A stretch of 64,000 nt of DNA from Acidithiobacillus sp. HP-2. GTDB taxonomy: Bacteria > Pseudomonadota > Gammaproteobacteria > Acidithiobacillales > Acidithiobacillaceae. Numbering within the stretch: position 1 is the first letter of the stretch; each line of letters begins with the position of its first letter. Of this stretch, positions 1-43,381 are shown one piece after another. A program made the position numbers and the translations under genes. The stretch spans positions 1 through 64,000 of the forward strand of contig NZ_JACKZA010000004.1 of the NCBI RefSeq assembly GCF_015100155.1. The letters are read 5' to 3'. The notes under the pieces were generated by a model. It searched no databases, had not been told where the DNA came from, and was given only the letters and a program-made list of their open reading frames with translations.

Positions 1-246
1 CAACTCCACCTCGGACAGCAGTGCCGTTTCCACCACCGCTGCCAACTTGGACTCGGCAGACCAACACTCTGCGGTCTTCTTGGTCACTGCACTCATCGTC
101 CCACTCGCTATCGCCTGCTTACGCCAATGGTACAGCGTCACATCAGAAATCCCTTCCTGTTTGGCCAGTTCTGGCACAGATAAACTGGTGGGCGGTAACA
201 TCTTCTGCAATACAGCGGCCTTACGTTCTGCTGAATAACTCTTCAT
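1..246 (-). mobile_element. IS3-type transposase OrfA, N-terminal part (runs off the window)
   Basis: The minus strand is open from an ATG at 246 to the window edge, giving 82 residues that begin MKSYSAERKAAVLQKMLPP. Residues 20-45 form a helix-turn-helix (SVPELAKQEGISDVTLYHWRK) typical of the DNA-binding OrfA/Tnp_1 subunit of IS3-family elements, which recognises the terminal repeats. The catalytic DDE part would lie left of position 1. I could not place the inverted repeat; it should fall to the right of 246. Being cut by the window edge, it may be intact or a relic. Confidence 0.75.
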
Positions 247-482
247 CTCGATAATCCACTTTCCGCCCCCACCCTACACCTGACTCCATTTCAGAGAGGC
301 GACAACTACCCTGACACCGGGGGGAAGTCACAAGATGTCACCCAAAGAGTGTTGCCGCTGCCTATGCAGACATAGACGCAACCTTGGCCGGGTTTGGATT
401 CCGAGACCGAGTGAAACACAGGGGCATCAAAAAATGACCGGCCCCTGCTTTTTGTCTCATAAATGGCCGATCCAGGCAGTGA

Positions 483-686
483 CTGGTCCCCGTTCAATCA
501 AGGGACTACGAACCTGGTTGGCTCTTTCCATCAGACATGATGGTGCATTATGTCCCAACCAACAGGAAGGTCGTCCCATGTTATTCGGCATACCGTACTT
601 CGTTAGTTCGAGATAAAGTTGACGAATACTTCAAAGACCCCTTGAAACCAGTCCTCTGCCGAGAATTATTTGCTGGGCGGATTTAA
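483..686 (+). pseudogene. Unrecognised coding fragment in the accessory segment
   Basis: This open frame runs from just after a stop to a TAA at 684-686. It reads like genuine protein (SRDYEPGWLFPSDMMVHY, then RKVVPCYSAYRTSLVRDKVD, then EYFKDPLKPVLCRELF). The first ATGs are at 537 and 540, with no good ribosome binding site. The composition is balanced, with conserved-looking aromatic, Pro and Cys positions, unlike the Arg/Ser/Pro-rich shadow frames around it. I do not recognise the family. It is probably the C-terminal remnant of a gene broken by the neighbouring insertion. Outside it, 247-482 and 687-819 hold nothing I can support. Confidence 0.3.
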
Positions 687-819
687 CTCCACGTTACGGG
701 GCATCTTCCGATATAACAATAACAAAAAATAATAGCTCAACATAACAGACATAGAAATGAATATGCGAACACGCCGCATCCATAAAAAACACCCAAGGAT
801 AAATATCTAATCACGAATC

Positions 820-1302
820 TTAGCGGGATGATGCTGACCAATTTATATACATTTCCTTACCAACCTCTTGAAGTCCAAAATATTGGTAAAGTTTGATCGC
901 CTTTTCATTATGGCTGAATACATGCAGAGCAAATCCTGATGCTTCCATGTTTTTACAATTATCCATAATATGTTGCATTAATCGTTTGCCAAAACCTCGA
1001 TTCTGATATTTTTCATCGATAAAAAACCAGAGCAGGACGGCAGCTTGATGGGGTACTGCCGAATACCATGCACCACCTATCATCTTACCATCATATTGCG
1101 CTGAAACAAGATACTGGTGATTGTCACTTTGTCGGTCAATATTATCTAGCATCTGTATCTGTCCTTGCGTGATATTGTGAGCCGCTTCTTCGGAAAGAAG
1201 CATGACCTTTTGCAGTTCCGCACTATGGTAATCCACAAGACTGGACTTCATAACAGGTAAAAATTCTTTAGATATCTCCATAAATATCAAATTTGAACAC
1301 AT
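820..1302 (-). CDS. GNAT-family N-acetyltransferase
   Basis: The 160-residue protein has the GNAT fold. The acetyl-CoA pyrophosphate loop (motif A) is FFIDEKYQNRGFGKRLM near residues 93-109, followed by a helix and the motif B region with ...HNEKAIKLYQYFGLQEVGKEMY, the usual end of small-molecule or protein acetyltransferases. The substrate cannot be told from sequence. The start at 1302 has a GGAG ribosome binding site about 9 nt upstream. It lies 30 nt downstream of the TPR-sulfotransferase gene in the same direction, so the two may be co-transcribed. The gene is clearly more AT-rich than the core of the window, which suggests acquisition with its neighbour. Confidence 0.85.
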   Translation of the reverse strand: MCSNLIFMEISKEFLPVMKSSLVDYHSAELQKVMLLSEEAAHNITQGQIQMLDNIDRQSDNHQYLVSAQYDGKMIGGAWYSAVPHQAAVLLWFFIDEKYQNRGFGKRLMQHIMDNCKNMEASGFALHVFSHNEKAIKLYQYFGLQEVGKEMYINWSASSR

Positions 1303-1332
1303 GTTATCATCTCCAAATATAAGAACGATAAG

Positions 1333-2850
1333 CTATTCATAAAAAGTTAAATAAAACTCTTTATAACGATCAATGTTTTCTTTAAGGTTGCCAAGATTGC
1401 CTGAATATTTCTGCCATTTATTTATAGACGAATCATAAATAGGTTGTTGGACCTGATGCCGGCTTGAAGTATTAATGATATTTTTGTTAAGATGAACGTT
1501 AAGACATGAATCTTCGTATGGCAACCCGAGAAAGTCCAGCACGCAACGAAGTTTTTTCTCAGGACTTTTTACCATTTCTTCATATCTAACTATTAATATA
1601 TTTTTTTCAAACAGAAGCTTCCATTGTTCAAGAGCATACTGACTAAAGCAATAGAATCTGGCTAATTGATCGAAATCATGGCTATAAGAATGATCACCTG
1701 TCATATTCTGCTGATAAATTGACAGGCAATTATCAAGAGCATCACGCTCACAAAAAATTATTTTAGACTCAGGAAATAACAACATTATTGTTCCGATATA
1801 TAGAAAATTATGTGGCAACTTGTCAATCATGACCTGAAAACAAAAATCGTTAACAAGTGACGCACAATAATCTATATACGCTTTTCTTAGGATATAAGTA
1901 GATTCATAACTGTCTGACTCAATAAATTCTGATGAACGTATTTTGGTTGCGATCTCAGGAATTTCAGATAGCTCACCTAATCCCACTATTTGCGTGTGCA
2001 TATCGAGCATTTGATGCAGCAAACTAGTGCCTGAACGGGGCATGCCAACAATGAATACTGGCGTATAATCTAGCTTTTCAAATTTTAGTAATTTTGGCTT
2101 TATATTTTCATAGATTTTAATATCTGACTTTAAATTTCTTTCCATAGATGGAAAATCATAACATCCATAAATACTTTTCTGCACAGAATGTGCAGCATTG
2201 TATAACAAAAAAGACTTATCATATTCACCATAATGGTGATGATAATTAGCCCTAATAAATAAAACAGATATATATGCATCGTTTAGTTTTTTTTGTTCGT
2301 CAATGTCAGACTCTAAAATTACTTCTGGATCACTAATTTTTATTTTTTTTACCAATAAATAAGCATTTTCAAATTCGCCGCGAATAAGACACATCTCAGC
2401 TCTTGCAACAATAAAAAATGGATCTTTTGATGATGTTACAATAGGCATAAGCAACCATTCTTGTGCTTCATCATACTTACCTTGTCGACCTAACGCCTGA
2501 ACCAGATTAATAATCAAAGGTAATGAGTCTTCATGCTTGGTCTTTAGCAACTGTCTGTATAACTTTTCTGCTTTACTGTAATGCCCCATTCGTATCCACA
2601 GAGCTCCGAGATAAAAACGTGCACTAAAATTATTCTGATCATTTTTTAGAGCAACATTAAATGCCTCTTCTGCTTTATTGTAGTAGTGCATTCCGGATAA
2701 TACGCGCCCTAATAGAATGATTCCTTTTATATCATCTGGAAATTTCCCAAGATAATCAATAAGGCACGTTGCGGAAGAAGCATAGTCTCGGGAATTGAAA
2801 TAATCTTTTGCTTTAGAAAACAAAATTTTATTGTGTTTTTTATTGTTCAT
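1333..2850 (-). CDS. TPR-repeat sulfotransferase-family protein
   Basis: A 505-residue protein in two parts. Residues about 5-220 are a helical repeat array with TPR signatures (NKAEEAFNVALKNDQNNFSA; GHYSKAEKLYRQLL). Residues about 260-490 are a PAPS-dependent sulfotransferase domain. The 5'-phosphosulfate-binding loop is VFIVGMPRSGTSLLHQM near 266-281, and the 3'-phosphate-binding segment is FCERDALDNCLSIYQQ near 365-380. This architecture is widespread in proteobacteria as TPR/sulfotransferase protein; the acceptors are usually unknown. No signal peptide or membrane segment is seen, so it is probably cytosolic. Very AT-rich, with runs of Lys/Asn/Ile codons unlike the core genes, which suggests horizontal transfer. 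It may modify a polysaccharide, peptide or small molecule, but nothing nearby decides. Confidence 0.85.
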   Translation of the reverse strand: MNNKKHNKILFSKAKDYFNSRDYASSATCLIDYLGKFPDDIKGIILLGRVLSGMHYYNKAEEAFNVALKNDQNNFSARFYLGALWIRMGHYSKAEKLYRQLLKTKHEDSLPLIINLVQALGRQGKYDEAQEWLLMPIVTSSKDPFFIVARAEMCLIRGEFENAYLLVKKIKISDPEVILESDIDEQKKLNDAYISVLFIRANYHHHYGEYDKSFLLYNAAHSVQKSIYGCYDFPSMERNLKSDIKIYENIKPKLLKFEKLDYTPVFIVGMPRSGTSLLHQMLDMHTQIVGLGELSEIPEIATKIRSSEFIESDSYESTYILRKAYIDYCASLVNDFCFQVMIDKLPHNFLYIGTIMLLFPESKIIFCERDALDNCLSIYQQNMTGDHSYSHDFDQLARFYCFSQYALEQWKLLFEKNILIVRYEEMVKSPEKKLRCVLDFLGLPYEDSCLNVHLNKNIINTSSRHQVQQPIYDSSINKWQKYSGNLGNLKENIDRYKEFYLTFYE

Positions 2851-3307
2851 TTAGATAATTTATTAAAAAATTGTGTGATAAATAAAATAACATAAAGCTA
2901 TGTAGTCGTACATTGAAAAAGTGTGAACAAATGTAAATTTCAAGAATGTTAAACTGGTGATATGGGAAAATCTCTTAATATTTTAGAAGAGTCCAGGGAG
3001 GATCTTCACTATATAATTGAAAACTACAATTCTTAAGGTATCAACTACAACCGCCACGATAGCAGTTTATTGCCAGCCCCCGGATTGATAATCCACTGGT
3101 CTGAGCCACTCAACCTCCAGCAAATAAAGGCATTACCGTGCTGGTTACACACTTATTTCTGGCGCTTTGCCCAAAATTCGCCCAAGGGAACTGCAAAAAC
3201 CACCTGTTGGTGTCCCGTCGCCATAGAGTAGTGTATCCAGTCGAGCTAATGCCCTGTTCATTCGGAATATCCGCAGGTTGTTTGACTGGCTCGGCTAACC
3301 CAGTATT
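2851..3307. other. AT-rich intergenic stretch beside tRNA-Leu, no supported gene
   Basis: 457 bases separate the sulfotransferase start from the tRNA 3' end. A 24-codon ORF on the plus strand (2962-3036, MGKSLNILEESREDLHYIIE...) looks like protein but has no ribosome binding site. AT-rich sequence up to about 3045 switches to balanced composition nearer the tRNA. No direct repeat of the tRNA 3' end (an attR candidate) was found by eye inside the window. Confidence 0.4.
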
Positions 3308-3392
3308 TGGTGCGAAAGGGGAGACTCGAACTCCCACGCCGTGCGGCGCTGGAACCTAAATCCAGTGCGTCTACCAATTCCGCCACTCTCGC
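3308..3392 (-). tRNA. tRNA-Leu(UAG)
   Basis: On the minus strand the 85-nt sequence folds as a class II tRNA. The acceptor arm GCGAGAG pairs with CTTTCGC. The D-arm contains TGGTAGACGC. The anticodon stem CTGGA/TCCAG encloses loop TTTAGGT with anticodon TAG. There is a long variable arm and a T-arm with GTTCGAGTC. The encoded discriminator A is followed by CCA. It closely resembles the bacterial leucine tRNA reading CUN codons. Accessory DNA begins directly downstream of its 3' end. Confidence 0.95.
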
Positions 3393-3401
3393 TTACGCGC
3401 T

Positions 3402-3430
3402 ATCTTATGCGGAATAGTCCCTGGCGACAA
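3402..3430 (-). promoter_or_regulatory. Sigma70-type promoter for tRNA-Leu
   Basis: On the minus strand a TTGTCG -35 element (3425-3430) and a TAAGAT -10 element (3402-3407) are separated by exactly 17 bp. The -10 lies 9 bp upstream of the mature tRNA 5' end, as expected for a short leader. Confidence 0.6.
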
Positions 3431-3447
3431 TCATCGGAGTACCGAGC

Positions 3448-4077
3448 ATGAGCAAGTCACAGCAACCCCATCGTTTACGCCGTTTGCTGGCTGTGGAGTC
3501 GGCCCGGATCATGGCGGAGGAGGGCGTCGTGGATTTTCGGGTGGCCAAGGAAAAAGCGGCGCGGCGTTTGGGTGCGGGGGGGGATGCTCAGCACCACTGG
3601 CCGAATAATAGTGAGATAGAATCGGAATTACATGCCCGCCTGCAGCTTTTTCACGGACCTGCCCATGCGGTGGATTTGCGCGAACTGCGCGAGCGGGCGC
3701 TGAAAGCTATGCAGTGGCTGGAGGTGTTTCAGCCGCGTCTGACCGGCCCGGTGTTGAATGGTACGGCTACGCGCCATGCGGCAATTACCCTGCATTTATT
3801 TGCGGATGCCCCTGAGACGGTCATTTTCTTTTTGATGGATCAGAAAACGCCCTATGAAGAAAGCTGGCAGCGCCTGCATTTTGGCGATGCCCCGGCGCAA
3901 GATTATCCCTGCCTGAAAATTGACTACGTAGACACGGAGATTCGTCTGGTCATTTTTGCGCTGGATGAAGACCGGCGCAGTCCCGCTTCGCCTGTGGATG
4001 GAAAACCGGTGAAGCGTGCGACTGGTCAGCAATTGCGCAAAATGCTGGAGCAAGAGCAGCTGCAAAATGGACTTTGA
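3448..4077 (+). CDS. Conserved hypothetical protein, possibly nucleotidyltransferase-like
   Basis: 209 residues, soluble, with GGAG 8 nt before the ATG. The N-terminus is a basic helical region (HRLRRLLAVESARIMAEEG, then AKEKAARRLG). The centre has LNGTATRHAAITLHLFAD followed by VIFFLMDQKTPYEES. I recall similar proteins in gamma- and betaproteobacteria annotated only as hypothetical or nucleotidyltransferase-like because of this central strand-loop region. That is memory of the family, not proof. It stands alone, converging with the DMT transporter gene 19 nt away. The product is probably cytosolic. Confidence 0.65.
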   Translation: MSKSQQPHRLRRLLAVESARIMAEEGVVDFRVAKEKAARRLGAGGDAQHHWPNNSEIESELHARLQLFHGPAHAVDLRELRERALKAMQWLEVFQPRLTGPVLNGTATRHAAITLHLFADAPETVIFFLMDQKTPYEESWQRLHFGDAPAQDYPCLKIDYVDTEIRLVIFALDEDRRSPASPVDGKPVKRATGQQLRKMLEQEQLQNGL

Positions 4078-19281: not shown

Positions 19282-21264
19282 ATGACCATACCCATGCTCG
19301 TTGATCATTTGCGTGAATACCATCAATGGCGAATGCGTATTGCAAATGCTGTGGATCAGCTTGCGAAGCTCTCTATAGAAATGGAAATTCTACCTAGCGG
19401 CACAATGTTACGCATGGAGAATCTTGCTCAGGAAATTGCCAGGGATCATTTACGTATATCGTTTTTTGGTGAGTTTGCCCGAGGTAAGTCCGAACTCATT
19501 AATGCCCTGTTTTTTTCGGATCTGGGCGCGCGTCTGATGCCCTCTGGTCCGGGACAAACTACCATGTGCCCTGTAGAGATTGCCTATACCCACATGACGC
19601 CTTCTTTGCAATTGTTGCCGATTCGCAGTAGAACTCTCAATGATTCAGTTGAAAAATTAAAAAAAATACGGGATCTCTGGACGATTTTACCATTGAATCC
19701 AGAAGACAAAAAAGACTGTGCAGAATGCATGACCCAACTGACAGAGACACTTTGTGTACCGATGGAAGAGGCACGTAGTTACGGATTATGCCCGCAAGTT
19801 AAAGAGTTTGGATCACAGTTAGAGACTGCTAACAGTGGCGACTGCGGAGAAGGGAAAGTTAGAATTTCGCGTTGGCGCTATGCGTTGCTGCAGTGGGTAC
19901 ATCCGGTGCTGGAAGCGGGGCTGGTTATTCTGGATACACCAGGCCTTAATTCATTGGGTAGTGAAGCAGATTTAGGGCTGGAGGTAGCCCGTGACGCTGA
20001 TGCATTGATATTTGTGCTGAGTGCGGATAGTGGTGTAACACAAAGCGACCTGGCGATCTGGGAACAATCACTTGGGCGTCATGCCCTACAAAATCAATTG
20101 GTAGTACTTAATAAAGTAGATACGCTTTGGGATGATTTGCTGAACCCTGAACAGGAGGCTGATGCTATTTCTGCTCAAAGAGAAAAGACGGCAACGCGCC
20201 TGGGATTAAGTGTGGACCAGGTCATTGCCGTCTCCGCGCAAAAAGGCTTACTGGGTCGGATTCGTCAGGATGACAGTTTATGTGCTCGAAGTAGGCTAAA
20301 AGAACTGGAAGAAGCAATAGCGCAAATTCTTATTCCTGGAAAGCGTGAATCCATCCTGGAAAGCGCGCGGCGACTGATCAGAAGGGTAGTTATTGATCAG
20401 CGCGTTTTGCTGGAGGAACAAATAAGGAATCTGGGCGGTGAGATTGAGAGTATGGAGCGTCTGCAGGCACAAACTGGAGAGCAATTACCGCGTTTGCTGG
20501 AAAAACAGAAAAAACTCATGCGCTCTTTTGCTCGTGACCAGGATTCTTTTGTGCTGAAAGAAAGGGAGTTTCTGGAATCTGCAAATACCTGGTTATTACA
20601 GTCGCTTTCCATGGAACAGCTTGATCAGATTATCATCTCTGCCCGGACAGAATTGCTGGCCGCCTGGACTACTGTAGGTATTTATGACCGATTCTCAAAG
20701 TTTTTCGAGGAGACTATTGCACAATTTGACAATGCTCTTGAGCGGGCCAATCGCCTTTCGGCATTAATGCTGGATGCCTATCGGGTACTTGAACAACAGT
20801 ATGGATTATCCAAACTGGATACCATTCCATATGTTATTTTGCCTCGGCGAGCCGAGTTGTTGGCGATAGCAGATCGCTATGAGCGTTTCGGTAAAAGACT
20901 GGAAATTGCTGCTTCCACACAAGGTTCGGTTGTTCGGAAGGCTTTTTTCTCACTAACACAGCAGATAGAGGATTTTGTAAAAGAAACGCAAAAAGACATA
21001 CGTAATTGGGTTAACGAGTCTCTTGATTTAATGAATCGTCAATTGGAACTTTTTGCCGCACAATCTAAAGAAAAGTTGACTGCATTGGAGTCAATTGTGC
21101 ATTCGTCGGCTAATATTCAGCCGCGTATTCAGTCGCTCAGTCAGCAAAGGCGGGTTAAGGAATCAAATTTAACTGCGCTGAATGATACTTATTATGGATT
21201 GGGTGAATTGCTGCAGATGGTCCCAGATGATAATTCTCAGGCAGCTCCTGCGGATGTTGTTTAA
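19282..21264 (+). CDS. Dynamin-like GTPase
   Basis: A 660-residue large GTPase. The P-loop is GEFARGKS (63-70), the G3 motif is VILDTPGLNS, and G4 is LNKVDTLWDD. These are followed by a long helical stalk with coiled-coil character (EEQIRNLGGEIESMERLQAQ) and a C-terminal helical bundle. This is the organisation of bacterial dynamin-like proteins, which remodel or guard membranes. I see no convincing transmembrane helix. The start has GGAGAG 6 nt upstream. It stands alone after lptFG with its own promoter and terminator. It is somewhat AT-richer than its neighbours. The cellular role is unknown; membrane repair or phage response is possible but not indicated. Confidence 0.85.
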   Translation: MTIPMLVDHLREYHQWRMRIANAVDQLAKLSIEMEILPSGTMLRMENLAQEIARDHLRISFFGEFARGKSELINALFFSDLGARLMPSGPGQTTMCPVEIAYTHMTPSLQLLPIRSRTLNDSVEKLKKIRDLWTILPLNPEDKKDCAECMTQLTETLCVPMEEARSYGLCPQVKEFGSQLETANSGDCGEGKVRISRWRYALLQWVHPVLEAGLVILDTPGLNSLGSEADLGLEVARDADALIFVLSADSGVTQSDLAIWEQSLGRHALQNQLVVLNKVDTLWDDLLNPEQEADAISAQREKTATRLGLSVDQVIAVSAQKGLLGRIRQDDSLCARSRLKELEEAIAQILIPGKRESILESARRLIRRVVIDQRVLLEEQIRNLGGEIESMERLQAQTGEQLPRLLEKQKKLMRSFARDQDSFVLKEREFLESANTWLLQSLSMEQLDQIIISARTELLAAWTTVGIYDRFSKFFEETIAQFDNALERANRLSALMLDAYRVLEQQYGLSKLDTIPYVILPRRAELLAIADRYERFGKRLEIAASTQGSVVRKAFFSLTQQIEDFVKETQKDIRNWVNESLDLMNRQLELFAAQSKEKLTALESIVHSSANIQPRIQSLSQQRRVKESNLTALNDTYYGLGELLQMVPDDNSQAAPADVV

Positions 21265-21297
21265 AAATAAAGAATTTTATGGTCCATTTCGTAATAT

Positions 21298-21333
21298 GAT
21301 TTTATGATAAAAATCACATTTTTATTATTTTTT
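21298..21333 (+). terminator. Probable intrinsic terminator after the dynamin-like gene
   Basis: GATTTT pairs with AAAATC around a 6-nt loop, followed by a stretch of T-rich sequence. The stem is short and AT-rich, so it is weak. Confidence 0.45.
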
Positions 21334-21360
21334 TGATATTTTTATCTATAATTATTCGAA

Positions 21361-23030
21361 TTCTTACAAAAAATACTAGACTTGCTAATGATTTTAAAGC
21401 GCAATCTTCTTTGCAATCTGCCTTGATCGAGGTGGATCGATTGTTGGGAACTCCCTGACACAGGATCTCTCTTTGACAACACAAAAGATGATGGAAATTC
21501 TGTCCAGATATCTGAATCATTCTTTAGTTTGGATCGGTGCGTTTAAAGCTGAGGATGATTCCTTCGGTATCCTGTCTCTGGCTGGATATCACCAATAAGT
21601 TGCCGTTATATCAAAAACTTACATCTGTACTGGCGGTTTTTATGGCTCTGTCCATAACGCACTAGAAAGTATTGTTGCTCAATATATGCCGCTTCTAGGA
21701 GACAATTCCTATAGAGGGTGGCCGATTGCTGATGATGAGATTTTTCATGCTAGTTTAAGTGTGCCTTATCGCAGCCTGAGTGGTGATAAGGGAATTATAG
21801 TTTTTTCTGCCAAAGAAAGTTGATCTGTTATCACCAAATCATACTTTGTGGATGCACCTTGCAGATGATTTCGCCGTGTTTTTGGAGTTGCCTGTCCTGA
21901 ACAGAGATATGATGTTTCATCATATGTATTAATCACCTCGAAGGGTTGTATGCCTGAAATTTCCCTCAAGTATTGGTTGGAAAAACCTGGTGCGGTCCGA
22001 CAATGGCTTCATGAAGTTGTCGAATGAATGCGTTATCGCGGTTGCGCTTTTTTTTTGATGAAGTAAGAGCGGATGCGTGTCTGGAAACTTGGCGAGATTC
22101 CGAGCCGACTATGAATAAAACTTCGGTTATTGGAGCCTGGCCTTTATGGGGTGATACTGGCTTGCAGGCAATTTTGTTCATAAGCAGCAATGATCCGGAC
22201 TGTTTTAACAATAAGTTGTGTTTGGGAAACTGGTAAGACGTTGTTTCCCTCTCTAACACCACGGAAAGAAGCCACGTCAAATACCGACATCCCTGTTGCG
22301 CTCTTGCCAGTTCTTCGCAGTGCCAAATTGTGGAGTGTTCTCGTGGTCAGAGGCCAGTTGACCGAATATTTGAGTGAGGATGTTGCAGGACTTCTGCAGC
22401 GAGTCGCTTCATTATTAGGTCGTGGTTTAGATGAGATTGATCTGAAGCAAAAGCTTGCGGATGAACAAATTCGGCAAAGCTGGCTTGCAAGTCATGATCC
22501 ATTAACTGGATAAATAAATCGTCGTGGGTTGGAAACTTACTTTTTCCATGCCATCTTGAGCGCTCAGCGCAATAGAACTTCGTTGGCTGTGTTACTTATT
22601 GATCTGGATGATTTTAAACCCGTCAATGATACCTATGGGCATGAAGCTGGCGATCGGCTTCTGGTCAGGGTGGCTGGTGCTTTGCAGGATGCCATACGCA
22701 ATACAGATTTTCTGGTACGCCTTGGGGAGACGAATTTGATATTTTACTGGAGGGTCTGCATAAGACGGATGATCTGCTGCCGGTCTTGGATAATATTTAC
22801 AAAGCCGTAGTCACGCCTTTCATGCTAGAGGCTGAAATTAAGGTATCGGTAGGCTGCAGTGCCAGACTGGCCTTGTATCCTGATGATTCAGCCACTCCGG
22901 ACGGTTTGCTGCGCCATGCGGATGAAGCCCTGTATGTAGCAAAACGTAACAAGCAGATCCGCCCCCAATACTGGGTGAATTATCTGGATATTCTGGCGGC
23001 CGAAAAAATACGACTAGACAGCGGCTCTGG
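21361..23030 (+). pseudogene. GAF-GGDEF diguanylate cyclase pseudogene
   Basis: The remains of a cyclic-di-GMP synthase can be read by switching frames. First comes a GAF-like sensor (MMEILSRYLNHSLVWIGAFK; then SVLVVRGQLTEYLSEDVAGL). Next is a linker helix and the GGDEF domain (SLAVLLIDLDDFKPVNDTYG; then ADEALYVAKRNKQ). Lesions include a TGA near 21457, a TAA near 21595, a TGA near 21823, several frameshifts, a TAA at 22511-22513 right after HDPLTG, and a lost G in the tract at 22724-22727. The last lesion turns the catalytic G-G-D-E-F into a frameshift. The accumulated damage shows a genuinely dead gene. Its 3' end runs up against the convergent hypothetical gene. Confidence 0.85.
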
Positions 23031-35032: not shown

Positions 35033-35233
35033 ATGCTGATACAGGTAAATGGTGCGCCCCGTGAGGTGCCGGAGCAAATGACGGTGCTGGCGCTGCTGGC
35101 CGATTTGGGTTGGGCAGGGCGGCGGGTAGCGGTGGAGCGCAATGGCGAAATTGTGCCGCGCAGCACCCATGGCGAGGTCATGGTTGCGGCGGGTGACCGT
35201 CTGGAAATTATTCAGGCGGTAGGCGGCGGTTAA
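35033..35233 (+). CDS. thiS: Sulfur carrier protein ThiS
   Basis: 66 residues with the ubiquitin-like beta-grasp fold. It begins MLIQVNGAPREVP and ends AVGGG, the C-terminal Gly-Gly that is adenylated and thiocarboxylated to deliver sulfur for the thiazole of thiamin. Start at 35033, after a GGGGAGG site about 12 nt upstream, with a shorter gap to GCAGGC. It lies 40 nt before thiG. No thiF is adjacent; the MoeB/ThiF at 42.2-42.9 kb may activate it. Confidence 0.9.
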   Translation: MLIQVNGAPREVPEQMTVLALLADLGWAGRRVAVERNGEIVPRSTHGEVMVAAGDRLEIIQAVGGG

Positions 35234-35275: not shown

Positions 35276-36064
35276 ATGACCATGCATAAAGATCCCCTGG
35301 TGATCGCGGGGCGTGCGTACCATTCCAGATTGTTGGTGGGTACGGGCAAGTACAAGGATTTTGCGGAAACCCGGGCGGCCGTAGATGCGGCCGGTGCGGA
35401 AATCATTACCGTGGCGCTGCGTCGGGTGAATCTTGGCCAGGATCGGGACGCCCCCAATTTGCTGGAGTCTTTGCCTCCGGATCAATTTACCATTCTTCCC
35501 AATACGGCGGGCTGTTATACCGCTGAAGACGCCGTGCGCACCTGTCGTCTGGCCCGTGAACTGGGTGACTGGAAACTGGTCAAGCTGGAAGTCATTGGCG
35601 ATCCTCAGACCCTTTATCCAGATATGCTGCAAACCTATGAAGCGGCCAAAACCCTGGTTGCCGAGGGTTTTGAGGTGATGGTGTACAGCATGGATGATCC
35701 GGTGGCCTGCAAGGCCTTTGCGGAAATGGGCTGTGTGGCGGTGATGCCGCTGGCGGCGCCCATTGGTTCGGGGCTGGGGATTCGCAATCCCTATAATCTG
35801 CGCATTATCCTTGAACAGGCGACGGTGCCGATTCTGGTGGATGCAGGGGTGGGTACGGCCTCGGATGTGGCGGTGGCCATGGAACTGGGTTGTGATGGGG
35901 TACTCCTGAATACGGCCATTGCCGCCGCCAAGGATCCGATATTGATGGCGGAAGCCATGCGTCTGGGTGTGGATGCCGGGCGCAAGGCGTTTTTGGCAGG
36001 CCGGATGCCGCGTAAACTCTACGCCAGCGCCAGCAGTCCGGTGGAAGGAACCTTCTTTGAGTAG
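35276..36064 (+). CDS. thiG: Thiazole synthase ThiG
   Basis: A 262-residue TIM-barrel enzyme. It condenses 1-deoxy-D-xylulose 5-phosphate, dehydroglycine and ThiS-thiocarboxylate sulfur. Family marks: [40 protein letters not shown], and the C-terminal [19 protein letters not shown]. Complete and of normal length. Its stop overlaps the TTG start of the following hypothetical. Confidence 0.97.
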
Positions 36065-40592: not shown

Positions 40593-41099
40593 ATGGGTAT
40601 TGTTACACGAAGTGCTGGCTTCTCCCAAAGTTTTTGGCGTTGGCCTTTGCTGATGATGGCCGCTTTGCCGTTGACGGCTTGCAGTGCTTTTCCGGCCCAT
40701 TCGCCGCATGTGCAACTGGAAAGCATTCATCCCCAGTCGGTAGGTTTTGTGTCGCAGACTTTTATTCTGGACCTGAAAATCAGCAATCCCAACAGCAGCG
40801 CCTTGCGCGCCAAGGCTGGGGAGGCGCGTTTGTTGGTGCAAGACCGGCAGGTGGCTTATGGCCTGCTGAATAAGCCCGTGCAGGTTCCGGCGTATGGAAG
40901 TAGCGTGGTTTCCATCCCGGTTACGGGTAATTTGTTACCCGTGTTGGGTGAACTGGGCAGTGTCGACAGTCAGAAGGGCCTGCCCTATGCCGTCAAGGGT
41001 TATCTGGTAACAGGACCTTTTGACAGCCGGATTCCTTTTACGGTGACCGGGTCTTTACATTTGCCTCTGGCTTCGAGTTCCAGCGCAGTCGCGCCTTGA
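40593..41099 (+). CDS. LEA14/WHy-domain lipoprotein
   Basis: 168 residues from the ATG at 40593 (GGAG 8 nt upstream; a longer frame begins upstream in the mlaE region). A signal peptide ends in the lipobox LPLTAC, so it is a lipoprotein. The rest has the beta-sandwich pattern of LEA type-2 proteins (LESIHPQSVGFVSQTFILDL; NPNSSALRAKAGEARLLVQD; VVSIPVTGNLLPVL). Function unknown; possibly outer-membrane lipid or stress related. Its 3' end overlaps the exonuclease-like gene by 62 nt on the other strand. Confidence 0.75.
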   Translation: MGIVTRSAGFSQSFWRWPLLMMAALPLTACSAFPAHSPHVQLESIHPQSVGFVSQTFILDLKISNPNSSALRAKAGEARLLVQDRQVAYGLLNKPVQVPAYGSSVVSIPVTGNLLPVLGELGSVDSQKGLPYAVKGYLVTGPFDSRIPFTVTGSLHLPLASSSSAVAP

Positions 41100-41820
41100 G
41101 GGCCAGATGATCGGACAGGGGTTCGCCAATACTTTCAATTTCGGTAAATTCCAGGTCCGGGCTACAGAAAATGTGGTCAAAGGAAAAGCGCGGAGACCAG
41201 CTCGGAAAGGTAGGCGGGTTCCAGGGAGGCGCCTGTAGTCCGCTTTCGGCCAGGAGCAGGCGGATTTCCGGGGAGCGGGCTGTGCAGTTGAGGTCGCCCA
41301 TGAGAATGAGGTGGCGGCGCTGGCGCAGACGTTGCGCGAGATCGCGGATTTGACTGAAACGGGCGTGACGACTGAGACCCAGATGGGTGATGACGACAGT
41401 CAGAGGCTGACCATTGATTTCGGTGCTGGTTTCCAGCATGCCCCGACCTTTCATGAAACTCGGCAGAGTATGCGGTTCACTGCGGGCAATGGGCCAGCGC
41501 GAGAGTACGCTGTTACTGTGCTGGGCCAGCTCGCCAAAATCACGGGTGCGTTGCTGCGCCCAGTAAGGAAAGTGCGCCCGTTCTGCCAAAAAACCGGCCT
41601 GATTCACATACTGGCTGCGAAACGAGCCGGCATCTACTTCATTCAGGCCGACAACATCCGCTTCTGAAAGAATTTCGGCAATGCGTTCCAGATTGCGCAG
41701 GCTCTGGCCGTGCGGCATTACATATTTCCAGCCATGGAGCAGCATGTGACGGGCACGATGAGAGCCAATACCCACCTGAATATTGAAGGACATGACTGAA
41801 AATCCATTGTCCTCAGTCAT
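41038..41820 (-). CDS. Endonuclease/exonuclease/phosphatase-family protein
   Basis: About 260 residues of the EEP fold. MSFNIQVGIGSH, VVGLNEVD (metal Glu), THLGLSRHARFSQI, LMGDLNC (Asp/Asn), and the C-terminal DHIFCSPDLEF and SDHLALKARL carry the metal-dependent phosphodiester site. It could cut phospholipid head groups, nucleic acid or sphingolipid-type substrates. Start at 41820, overlapping the upstream gene by 8 nt, or at 41793 (MSFNIQ). Last gene of the MoeB cluster. Confidence 0.85.
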   Translation of the reverse strand: MTEDNGFSVMSFNIQVGIGSHRARHMLLHGWKYVMPHGQSLRNLERIAEILSEADVVGLNEVDAGSFRSQYVNQAGFLAERAHFPYWAQQRTRDFGELAQHSNSVLSRWPIARSEPHTLPSFMKGRGMLETSTEINGQPLTVVITHLGLSRHARFSQIRDLAQRLRQRRHLILMGDLNCTARSPEIRLLLAESGLQAPPWNPPTFPSWSPRFSFDHIFCSPDLEFTEIESIGEPLSDHLALKARLRWNSKPEANVKTRSP

Positions 41821-42178
41821 TTTCCAGCTCGATGATTTTTTCCTGCCAGCCTTGTCCGGCTTTCCGGGCATAGGCGCGCAAGACGATCACCCCACGGATG
41901 TCGGTTGCCAGACGGATTTGGTAGGGTGGATCAAAGGGGCTCAGAGGCTTTTCGGGCAAAGTGCTGTAAGGCTCCTGCGGAGCCGCCGCATAGCAGGCAA
42001 AAAGCGTTTCGCCCCGGCTGGTCAGCAGATCCAGCGCCATGCCGCGCTGTTCGGCACTGACCGGGTAAACGGAGCAGGGGCGTTCTTGCAAAGCGCCGAC
42101 CAGCCCTTGTCCAGCGCCAGACTGCAGATCACCGAGCAGGGCGTTGGCCAGAGTGCGGGGTAAAATCAAAGGGTTCAT
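41813..42178 (-). CDS. Degenerate JAB/Mov34-like (M67) protein, likely non-catalytic
   Basis: 121 residues starting MNPLILPRTLANALLG. Length, strand pattern and adjacency to an E1-like gene match the JAB/MPN fold often paired with ThiF/MoeB. The place of the metal motif (HSHP in active members) reads CYAAAPQEP, and the following Ser/Asp site is missing, so it is probably not a metalloprotease (alignment by eye). The ATG overlaps the moeB stop (ATGA). Roles of such inactive members are unknown; it may be a binding partner of the E1. This assignment is an inference. Confidence 0.5.
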   Translation of the reverse strand: MNPLILPRTLANALLGDLQSGAGQGLVGALQERPCSVYPVSAEQRGMALDLLTSRGETLFACYAAAPQEPYSTLPEKPLSPFDPPYQIRLATDIRGVIVLRAYARKAGQGWQEKIIELEND

Positions 42179-42945
42179 GCGCAGACCCCGCCGCAAACCC
42201 CACAGGCTGGGTCGCGGCGCAATTGTACCTGACGCCATTGCCAGTGGCGGGCGTCGATCAGCAGGAGTTGTCCGCTCAGTGGGGAGTTGTGACCGCTGAG
42301 CAGACGAATAGCCTCAACGGCCTGCATGCTGCCGAGAATGCCCAGTAATGGCCCCAGCACCCCGTTGCGGGAGCAGGTATCTTCGCCATTTTCTTCGCCC
42401 TGTTCTGGATACAGGCAAGCATAACAGGCGCTGTTCGGGTCGCGGAAATCAAACACGCTGAGCTGACCCTCCCAGCGAATGGCAGCGGCACTGACCAGCG
42501 CTGTGCGGGCCTCGCGGCAGGCGCGGTTGATGGCGTGGCGGCTGTGAAAATTGTCGCTGCAATCCAGAACCAGATCATGGGTTTCCAGGGCGCTGCCCAG
42601 CGATTCACTGCTGGCGTTTTCGGTCCAGGCACTCACCCGGATATGGGGATTCATGGCCAGCAGTCGTTCACGGGCAGCGCTGGCCTTGGGCCGTCCCAGG
42701 TCCGCTTCGGTATAAAGAATCTGACGTTGCAGATTACTGATTTCTACAACGTCCCCATCGCAAAGGGTCAGTTGTCCAATTCCTGCCGCAGCCAGATACT
42801 GCGATGCCGGACAACCCAGTCCACCCATGCCGATGATCAGTACCCGGCTTAGCTGCAGGCGTTTTTGTCCTTCGAGGTCAATTTCCGGCAGAAGAATCTG
42901 TCGGGAGTAACGCATTAGGGCGGCATCATCCAGGGAATCAGTCAT
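42175..42945 (-). CDS. MoeB/ThiF-family E1-like adenylyltransferase
   Basis: 256 residues. It activates the C-terminal Gly-Gly of a ubiquitin-like sulfur carrier (MoaD or ThiS) by adenylation. RVLIIGMGGLGCPASQYLAA is the nucleotide-binding loop, CDGDVVEISNLQRQILY follows, and VLDCSDNFHSRHAIN lies near the active site. The two zinc CxxC pairs are CYACLYPEQ and CGVCGG. Start taken at MTDSLDD (42945), which overlaps the upstream gene by 8 nt. No rhodanese domain. MoeB and ThiF cannot be separated from sequence alone; it could serve the thiS gene 7 kb away. Confidence 0.88.
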   Translation of the reverse strand: MTDSLDDAALMRYSRQILLPEIDLEGQKRLQLSRVLIIGMGGLGCPASQYLAAAGIGQLTLCDGDVVEISNLQRQILYTEADLGRPKASAARERLLAMNPHIRVSAWTENASSESLGSALETHDLVLDCSDNFHSRHAINRACREARTALVSAAAIRWEGQLSVFDFRDPNSACYACLYPEQGEENGEDTCSRNGVLGPLLGILGSMQAVEAIRLLSGHNSPLSGQLLLIDARHWQWRQVQLRRDPACGVCGGVCA

Positions 42946-43381
42946 TGTTGAAGTCATAGTCAATGTCATTTTCTTCTGCGGGCATCCCCGGCACGGGCTG
43001 GTAATAGCCCTGCTGGCGCTCCAGACGCATGTGATAACGCTCACGGATGGCATCCAGCATCCAGAGAATCTCGCTGGGATGCCCGGCATGCTTGCCATGC
43101 AGCAAGTGGCGTAAATACAGATGGTCCGGATCGACCTTGACCAGCAGCGGCATGGGTAAACCCAGAGGGATGACGTGATGATGAACAACCCATTCAATGG
43201 GTGTCGGCGGCGTGCCGGGAGGAATCCGCACATCTATCCGGAAATGCCCGCCGCCACCAGGCTGTTCCAGCAGTTCCTTGAAATATTGATCAGGAAAACC
43301 GCGATGGACGATGAGGGTACGCCCATTAAAACGGTTCAGAAATTGTTCTTGCAGGAGTAGATGCGGAATGGAATTTGGCAT
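42938..43381 (-). CDS. Unknown 147-residue protein coupled to the E1-like enzyme
   Basis: MPNSIPHLLLQEQFLNRFNG starts it; start at 43381, because the upstream frame is not protein-like. The middle has GGGGHFRIDVRIPPGTPPTP and WVVHHHVIPLGLPMPLLV, then KVDPDHLYLRHLLHGKHAGH, ending in an acidic tail. There is no cysteine. The run of strand, Pro-rich turn and HPxx-rich region is faintly like ubiquitin-conjugating-type folds, but that is speculation. It overlaps the E1-like gene start by 8 nt and so is probably its partner. Otherwise unrecognised. Confidence 0.6.
   Translation of the reverse strand: MPNSIPHLLLQEQFLNRFNGRTLIVHRGFPDQYFKELLEQPGGGGHFRIDVRIPPGTPPTPIEWVVHHHVIPLGLPMPLLVKVDPDHLYLRHLLHGKHAGHPSEILWMLDAIRERYHMRLERQQGYYQPVPGMPAEENDIDYDFNND

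What the first reader, a model, noticed from the sequence alone, without database searches (positions are those of the whole stretch)
41038..43381. Coupled E1-like / inactive JAB / unknown / EEP-nuclease cluster
Four genes overlap by 4-8 nt: unknown 147-aa protein, MoeB/ThiF enzyme, a JAB-like protein whose HSHP is replaced by AAAP, and an EEP hydrolase. Bacterial E1-JAB pairs can be conjugation-like or sulfur-carrier systems; loss of the protease site is odd and may mark an unusual sulfur-transfer or regulatory complex.
Basis: partly seen in the sequence, partly recalled or inferred. Interest (0 to 1): 0.5.

Follow-up and report, generated by a model that had tools for sequence, protein, structure and literature searches.

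The report
Dead protease beside sulfur-carrier activating enzyme
In a family of acid-loving sulfur bacteria, the protein-cutting partner of the enzyme that loads sulfur carriers has lost its active site but is still kept as a gene, perhaps because the carriers in these bacteria have no tail that needs cutting off.

Summary
Four coupled genes (147-aa unknown, MoeB/ThiF-type E1, 121-aa JAB-like protein, EEP hydrolase) overlap by 8, 4 and 8 nt. The 121-aa protein has no sequence-profile match, but its AlphaFold model matches JAB/MPN structures (PfJAMM1, Z 11.1), and the whole JAMM site is gone. None of 23 Acidithiobacillaceae orthologues read in full has HSHP; the other family of the order has the same gene order with an intact JAMM. 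The dead gene is still under purifying selection (dN/dS about 0.2). The E1 is the only ThiF-family match above 200 bits in each of 21 family genomes, so it probably serves ThiS and MoaD.

The best clue came from the carriers. In Gammaproteobacteria with an intact JAMM, 31 of 80 ThiS/MoaD proteins run on past their GG end (24 of 41 genomes). Without JAMM 0 of 30 do, and in Acidithiobacillaceae 0 of 42. I read the ancestral JAMM as the protease that trims carrier tails, and the Acidithiobacillaceae protein as its pseudoenzyme descendant, kept for a non-catalytic role that is not shown. A conjugation-like system is not supported. Three fragmentary genomes have tailed MoaD without a detected JAMM, and cleavage itself is untested.

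The parts
42938..43381 (-). 147-aa protein of unknown function (called U147)
   Evidence: ORF; no Pfam, NCBIfam or PADLOC match up to E 1 and no convincing PDB sequence match; confident model (pLDDT 89.2) without a clear fold match (best Z 5.2 to thioredoxin); found in 19 of 369 class genomes
42175..42945 (-). MoeB/ThiF-type E1-like adenylyltransferase
   Evidence: PF00899 E 3.8e-81; MoeB subfamily NF004281 above cut-off; aligns over its length with MoeB 1jw9 including the two CxxC pairs and the TC cysteine; only match above 200 bits in the genome
41813..42178 (-). 121-aa JAB/MPN-fold pseudoenzyme (MPN minus)
   Evidence: model pLDDT 81.5; best matches PfJAMM1 5ld9/5lda, Foldseek E 1.3e-4, Z 11.1; catalytic Glu, HxHP and S/D absent
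41038..41820 (-). EEP-superfamily hydrolase (alternative ATG at 41871)
   Evidence: PF03372 E 6.9e-22; follows the pseudo-JAB in all 22 family loci fetched
35033..35233 (+). thiS, predicted client of the E1; ends ...AVGGG then stop, no tail
   Evidence: PF02597; C-terminus read
35276..36064 (+). thiG, next to thiS
   Evidence: PF05690 E 1.5e-110

Best explanation
The E1 adenylates the C-terminal GG of ThiS and MoaD and is probably the only enzyme of the cell that does so. The JAB-like gene descends from a zinc protease (JAMM) whose job, in relatives, is to trim C-terminal tails off ThiS and MoaD so that the E1 can load a free GG end. In the ancestor of Acidithiobacillaceae the carriers were, or became, tail-less; the protease lost its active site, and the remaining MPN-fold protein was kept under weaker but real purifying selection as a non-catalytic partner of the E1 and/or of the EEP enzyme in the same operon. 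Shown: gene order, fold of the model, loss of the active site, retention, selection, and the association of tails with JAMM. Inferred: that the E1 acts on both carriers, that JAMM cuts these tails, whether the loss followed tail-less carriers or the reverse, and what the dead protein does now.
For: Fold. Loss of site: none of 22 family orthologues has HxHP, both proteins of the other family of the order do (sequences). That family (G029, G030) keeps U147-E1-JAB order. Of 60 class loci fetched from the 92 strong Prok-JAB genomes, 60 have the JAMM motif and 35 have an E1 on the same strand within 200 nt, 27 of them overlapping or abutting with ORFs taken from their first start codon. Tails after GG: 31 of 80 carriers and 24 of 41 genomes with JAMM; 0 of 30 carriers and 0 of 19 genomes without; 0 of 42 carriers and 0 of 21 genomes in Acidithiobacillaceae (one mis-sorted genome moved by hand, tested: Fisher p 6.9e-6 against the no-JAMM set). 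One JAMM genome (G165) has ThiS fused to ThiG. Class-wide MoaD pattern test: tail in 14 of 69 JAMM genomes against 3 of 130 others (p 3.6e-5). Only one ThiF-family match above 200 bits in each of 21 family genomes. dN/dS 0.20 for JAB over 7 independent pairs without the EEP overlap, 0.11-0.14 for the neighbours.
Against: Association is not cleavage: no cutting was tested. 17 of 41 JAMM genomes have no tail on any carrier read, among them G029 of the other family of the order, so JAMM is kept there for some other reason as well. In 25 of 60 JAMM loci no E1 was found within 200 nt (some of these stretches are short). Three genomes (G239, G340, G382) have tailed MoaD without a detected JAMM; all are fragmentary (300-440 contigs, 86-94% complete) and share a genus with a JAMM genome, but they count against the rule. 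In genomes new to the class-wide test the association is weak (4 of 38 against 3 of 124, p 0.053; two of the 124, G000 and G018, had been read before). No correction for phylogeny was made. The JAB tree does not place Acidithiobacillaceae with the other family (stem 0.97), although the E1 tree does with support 0.955. The shortened segment may also have removed carrier binding.
Confidence: 0.6

Rival explanations
1. The JAB-like gene is a decaying relic with no function, kept only because it sits inside a translationally coupled operon.
For: It evolves about twice as fast as its neighbours, has a long stem in the tree, varies from 101 to 122 aa and has lost its motif completely.
Against: No stop inside any of the 22 family matches; dN/dS about 0.2 over 7 independent pairs, though one pair reaches 0.60; a mostly confident model; retained even where the E1 lies elsewhere.
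Confidence: 0.15
2. The pseudo-JAB was recruited as a regulatory or targeting subunit of the EEP hydrolase, away from the sulfur carriers.
For: JAB-EEP is the linkage that is not broken in any of 22 loci, also where U147-E1 lie elsewhere. No EEP match on the two 3.4-kb loci of the other family with intact JAMM (L018, L021), so its place in the operon may coincide with loss of the protease site.
Against: Linkage alone; E1-JAB also overlap in most family genomes; no interaction tested; the other family was not searched for an EEP outside these short stretches.
Confidence: 0.15
3. A bacterial ubiquitin-like conjugation system with U147 as carrier or E2.
For: E1 and JAB-fold protein in one operon; similarity of the E1 domain to PADLOC E1-E2 models (best E 7e-20, far weaker than the ThiF match).
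Against: U147 has no invariant Cys and no terminal GG and no clear fold match; the JAB site needed for deconjugation is gone; on the stretches fetched from 15 class genomes outside the order and on L036, no JAB match like this one was found beside U147.
Confidence: 0.03

Closest known systems
Deinococcus DRJAMM, which cleaves the MoaD-MoaE fusion (PMC8832034; passages seen)
   Same: JAMM acting on a MoaD carrier that is not born with a free GG end; parallels the tailed carriers and the ThiS-ThiG fusion of JAMM genomes here
   Different: Here the Acidithiobacillaceae member is catalytically dead and the carriers have no tail
QbsD/QbsE and Wolinella HcyD/HcyS tail-trimming (recalled, no text seen)
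   Same: Short C-terminal tail removed from a ThiS-like protein by a JAMM
   Different: Those serve other pathways; here the carriers are the housekeeping ThiS and MoaD
E1-JAB gene neighbourhoods of Iyer, Burroughs and Aravind 2006 (PMC1779556; passages seen; authors recalled)
   Same: E1-like gene next to a JAB gene; the paper suggests that JAB may free ThiS or MoaD where these are fused to other proteins
   Different: That paper reports JAB as absent from thiamine and MoCo operons; here JAMM presence goes with tails on housekeeping ThiS and MoaD, and one lineage has lost the site
Eukaryotic MPN-minus subunits such as Rpn8, CSN6 and KIAA0157 (complexes seen as structure matches; roles recalled)
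   Same: MPN fold without the metal site, beside enzymes of a ubiquitin-like pathway
   Different: No active MPN partner of this kind was recognised in this genome (only a 234-aa frame that I take for RadC); the function is unknown

Membership tests
JAMM / MPN+ metalloprotease (Prok-JAB, PF14464) | JAB/MPN fold | tested here: met
   Model pLDDT 81.5; PfJAMM1 Z 11.1 over 112 residues, rmsd 2.7
JAMM / MPN+ metalloprotease (Prok-JAB, PF14464) | Catalytic Glu, HxHP and S/D zinc site | tested here: not met
   Absent in the window protein; no HxHP in 22 of 22 family orthologues; present in both proteins of the other family
JAMM / MPN+ metalloprotease (Prok-JAB, PF14464) | Match to the Pfam model | tested here: not met
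   No Pfam family up to E 1 for the window protein and no Prok-JAB match for five more family orthologues; the two proteins of the other family match at 3.1e-20 and 8.8e-20
MoeB/ThiF sulfur-carrier E1 | ThiF domain with catalytic and zinc cysteines | tested here: met
   PF00899 E 3.8e-81, NF004281 above cut-off, alignment to 1jw9; roles of the cysteines recalled
MoeB/ThiF sulfur-carrier E1 | Activates ThiS and/or MoaD | not testable with these tools
   Inferred from its being the only strong ThiF-family match with two carriers in the genome
Bacterial ubiquitin-like conjugation operon (E1-E2-JAB-Ubl) | Dedicated ubiquitin-like protein and E2 in the operon | tested here: inconclusive
   No such gene recognised; U147 lacks invariant Cys and terminal GG, fold unassigned
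EEP hydrolase superfamily | Exo_endo_phos domain | tested here: met
   PF03372 78.7 bits against cut-off 24.5

The most novel reading that the evidence does not exclude
Two linked claims. First, a general rule in Gammaproteobacteria: a JAMM protease, often encoded next to the E1, is the maturase of housekeeping ThiS and MoaD, and its presence frees these carriers to drift tails or even fuse to ThiG. Second, Acidithiobacillaceae kept both carriers ending at GG, lost the protease site and turned the protein into a non-catalytic subunit, a bacterial counterpart of the dead MPN subunits of eukaryotic ubiquitin machines.
Probability: 0.35. Interest if true: 0.65.

Novelty: new variant of a known kind. 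Interest (0 to 1): 0.48.

Why it matters
If true, it gives the common bacterial E1-JAB gene pair a concrete, testable job in thiamine and molybdenum-cofactor synthesis, explains why many ThiS and MoaD genes carry extra codons after GG, and provides a natural experiment in which the protease site is lost where the tails are absent. It also offers a bacterial dead-JAMM protein for studying how MPN folds become scaffolds.

Tried and rejected
Sequence searches for the JAB-like and 147-aa proteins (Pfam, NCBIfam, PADLOC, PDB) gave nothing convincing, so structure prediction was needed. U147 gave no clear fold: Foldseek's best match is E 0.11, the best Z is 5.2 to a thioredoxin, a level that the tool warns may mean only a common arrangement, and no Cys is conserved. 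PADLOC E1-E2 hits of the E1 were rejected as ordinary cross-family similarity. I expected the JAB tree to mirror the E1 tree; it did not, and I take this as a long-branch effect without proof. The guess that all genomes with JAMM would have tails failed (24 of 41; one of the two in the order). Papers: the QbsD/HcyS search listed 20 of 481 papers, none of them on that system by title; one on pseudomonads that holds both names was not opened; a search for Acidithiobacillus with JAB and ThiF returned none; the listings (at most 20 shown each) showed no title or abstract start that reports the tail rule, and I opened passages of only two papers. So 'not in print' is not claimed.

Rows dropped, unread or mis-sorted: G249 was put into the JAMM set by mistake; the corrected counts are by hand and tested. 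L338 was dropped because its match does not end in GG. Of 89 carrier rows I read 76; 13 weaker rows were not read. Of 34 control rows I read 30. Weak ThiS-model hits inside frames of about 300-820 aa were left out. Two no-JAMM controls (G042, G055) hold a different JAMM-like protein at E about 1e-9, outside my limit of 1e-10. The 17 genomes that differ between searches were picked out by eye (199 minus 182 agrees). Pattern one search uses TRR, so a tail that starts with Trp (TGG) would be missed, and only MoaD proteins ending in the exact pattern are seen.
Full report
What is there. The window is Acidithiobacillus: the named loci closest in U147 are a MAG filed as A. ferrivorans, A. concretivorus and A. 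sulfurivorans (94, 93 and 91% identity). On the minus strand lie a 147-aa protein (U147), a MoeB/ThiF-type E1, a 121-aa JAB-like protein and an EEP hydrolase, overlapping by 8, 4 and 8 nt. Upstream is a CrtC/lipocalin-domain gene; downstream, convergent and overlapping the end of the EEP gene, is an LEA_2-domain gene. thiS and thiG lie about 5 kb away on the other strand.

The E1. It is an ordinary MoeB/ThiF enzyme by profile and by alignment to MoeB 1jw9, with both CxxC pairs and the TC cysteine. Of 23 genomes searched with the ThiF model, each of the 21 Acidithiobacillaceae genomes has exactly one match above 200 bits, the one of this cluster; the next match is 140 bits or less, which I take to be TcdA in most (not tested). 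Each of these 21 genomes has one ThiS and one MoaD by the C-termini read. The simplest reading is that this E1 serves both.

The JAB-like protein. It has no Pfam, NCBIfam or PADLOC match up to E 1 and no PDB sequence match. An AlphaFold model from 12 orthologues is fairly good (pLDDT 81.5, pTM 0.77, weakest around residues 68-80), and its best structural matches are JAMM/MPN proteins, first Pyrococcus JAMM1 (Foldseek E 1.3e-4; Z 11.1, rmsd 2.7 over 112 residues). So it is a JAB fold. The catalytic Glu, the HxHP and the Ser/Asp pair are missing, and the segment before the motif is shortened (alignment of three family and two other proteins). I read 23 Acidithiobacillaceae orthologues in full and saw no HSHP; of the 22 tested by script none has HxHP, while the two proteins of the other family of the order (G029, G030) have EExCGLIG...HSHP...PSATD. 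Those two match Prok-JAB strongly; five further Acidithiobacillaceae orthologues do not match it.

History. The other family of the order has U147-E1-JAB in the same order; no EEP was found on the 3.4-kb stretches. All four genes in order occur in 17 of the 24 Acidithiobacillaceae genomes in which I located the JAB-like gene. The exceptions are informative: U147 was not found in 8 of 29 genomes, 3 of these incomplete, and in G025 the U147-E1 pair lies apart from JAB-EEP (in G028 U147 lies apart by the coordinates). JAB-EEP are together in 22 of 22 loci. The E1 tree (38 sequences) groups the two families with support 0.955; the JAB tree has a stem of 0.97 for Acidithiobacillaceae, against 0.25 for the E1, and does not group the families.

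Selection. Over 7 independent pairs, and without the 22 C-terminal codons that may overlap the EEP, dN/dS of the JAB gene is 0.20 (range 0.07-0.60); it is 0.11 for U147 (5 pairs), 0.11 for E1 (6 pairs) and 0.14 for EEP (7 pairs) (further, non-independent pairs). The gene is kept, under looser constraint.

What the active relatives do. In 369 Gammaproteobacteria genomes 92 hold a Prok-JAB match at E 1e-10 or better. I fetched 60 of these loci: all 60 have the JAMM motif with a Glu upstream (a loose pattern), and in 35 an E1 lies within 200 nt on the same strand, in 27 of them overlapping or abutting by longest ORFs. I then read the C-termini of ThiS and MoaD. With an intact JAMM, 31 of 80 carriers run on past GG, in 24 of 41 genomes: 30 by 1-30 residues (16 by exactly 2), and one, in G165, into ThiG. 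15 of the 31 tails begin with Ala; beyond that I see no common sequence. Without JAMM it is 0 of 30 carriers and 0 of 19 genomes; in Acidithiobacillaceae 0 of 42 carriers and 0 of 21 genomes (Fisher p 6.9e-6 and 3.0e-6). The G165 protein holds ThiS at 2-62 and ThiG from 69 on and, I infer, could hardly work as a carrier uncut. A class-wide pattern test on MoaD alone found a tail in 17 of the 199 genomes with the pattern: 14 of 69 JAMM genomes and 3 of 130 others (p 3.6e-5). The three exceptions have no detectable JAMM; they are drafts of 300-440 contigs at 86-94% completeness, whose genus-mates G116, G240, and G176 with G287 have one. In genomes not used in the first test the association is 4 of 38 against 3 of 124, p 0.053, so the second test is only weakly independent support.

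Interpretation. A JAMM that trims tails explains why tails are found almost only where JAMM exists, and why JAMM often sits next to the E1. It agrees with DRJAMM of Deinococcus, which cleaves MoaD-MoaE (PMC8832034, passages seen), and with the suggestion of Iyer and colleagues that JAB may free fused ThiS or MoaD, although they report JAB as absent from thiamine and MoCo operons (PMC1779556, passages seen). In Acidithiobacillaceae the carriers have no tail, so nothing needs trimming, and the protease site has gone. Which came first cannot be told. The retained MPN fold most likely holds the E1, a carrier or the EEP enzyme; this is inference.

What it is not. I recognised no dedicated ubiquitin-like protein or E2 in the cluster: U147 has no invariant Cys and no GG end and no clear fold match; outside the order U147 occurs in other gene contexts.

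Noticed in passing
L369 (G165:C1:3877500-3878100), minus strand 1-411: ThiS fused to ThiG in one reading frame, in a genome with an intact JAMM.
   Followed up: partly
carriers with tails: 15 of 31 tails after GG begin with Ala, as in the Wolinella HcyS tail that I recall; could be a preference of the protease.
   Followed up: no
L155-L168 and L036: Outside the order, many U147 relatives lie near genes that look to me like FIST-domain, PrkB-like kinase, TatD and TcdA genes (named by eye, not searched).
   Followed up: partly
G239, G340, G382: Three draft genomes with MoaD running past GG but no detected JAMM; incomplete assembly or true exceptions.
   Followed up: partly
L099 (G016:C48), L100 and L119 (G013:C186 and C37), L101 (G010:C175), L111 (G009:C68): Some Acidithiobacillus genomes carry additional ThiF-like plus JAB-like pairs or fusions, unlike this cluster, possibly on mobile elements.
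   Followed up: no
L060 and L096 (G029:C2:38079-39045): G029 has a second E1 directly next to a second, tail-less MoaD.
   Followed up: no
window 1-4000 and 20001-22000: GC drops to 0.41-0.43 against 0.48-0.60 in the other 2-kb steps, as in acquired DNA.
   Followed up: no
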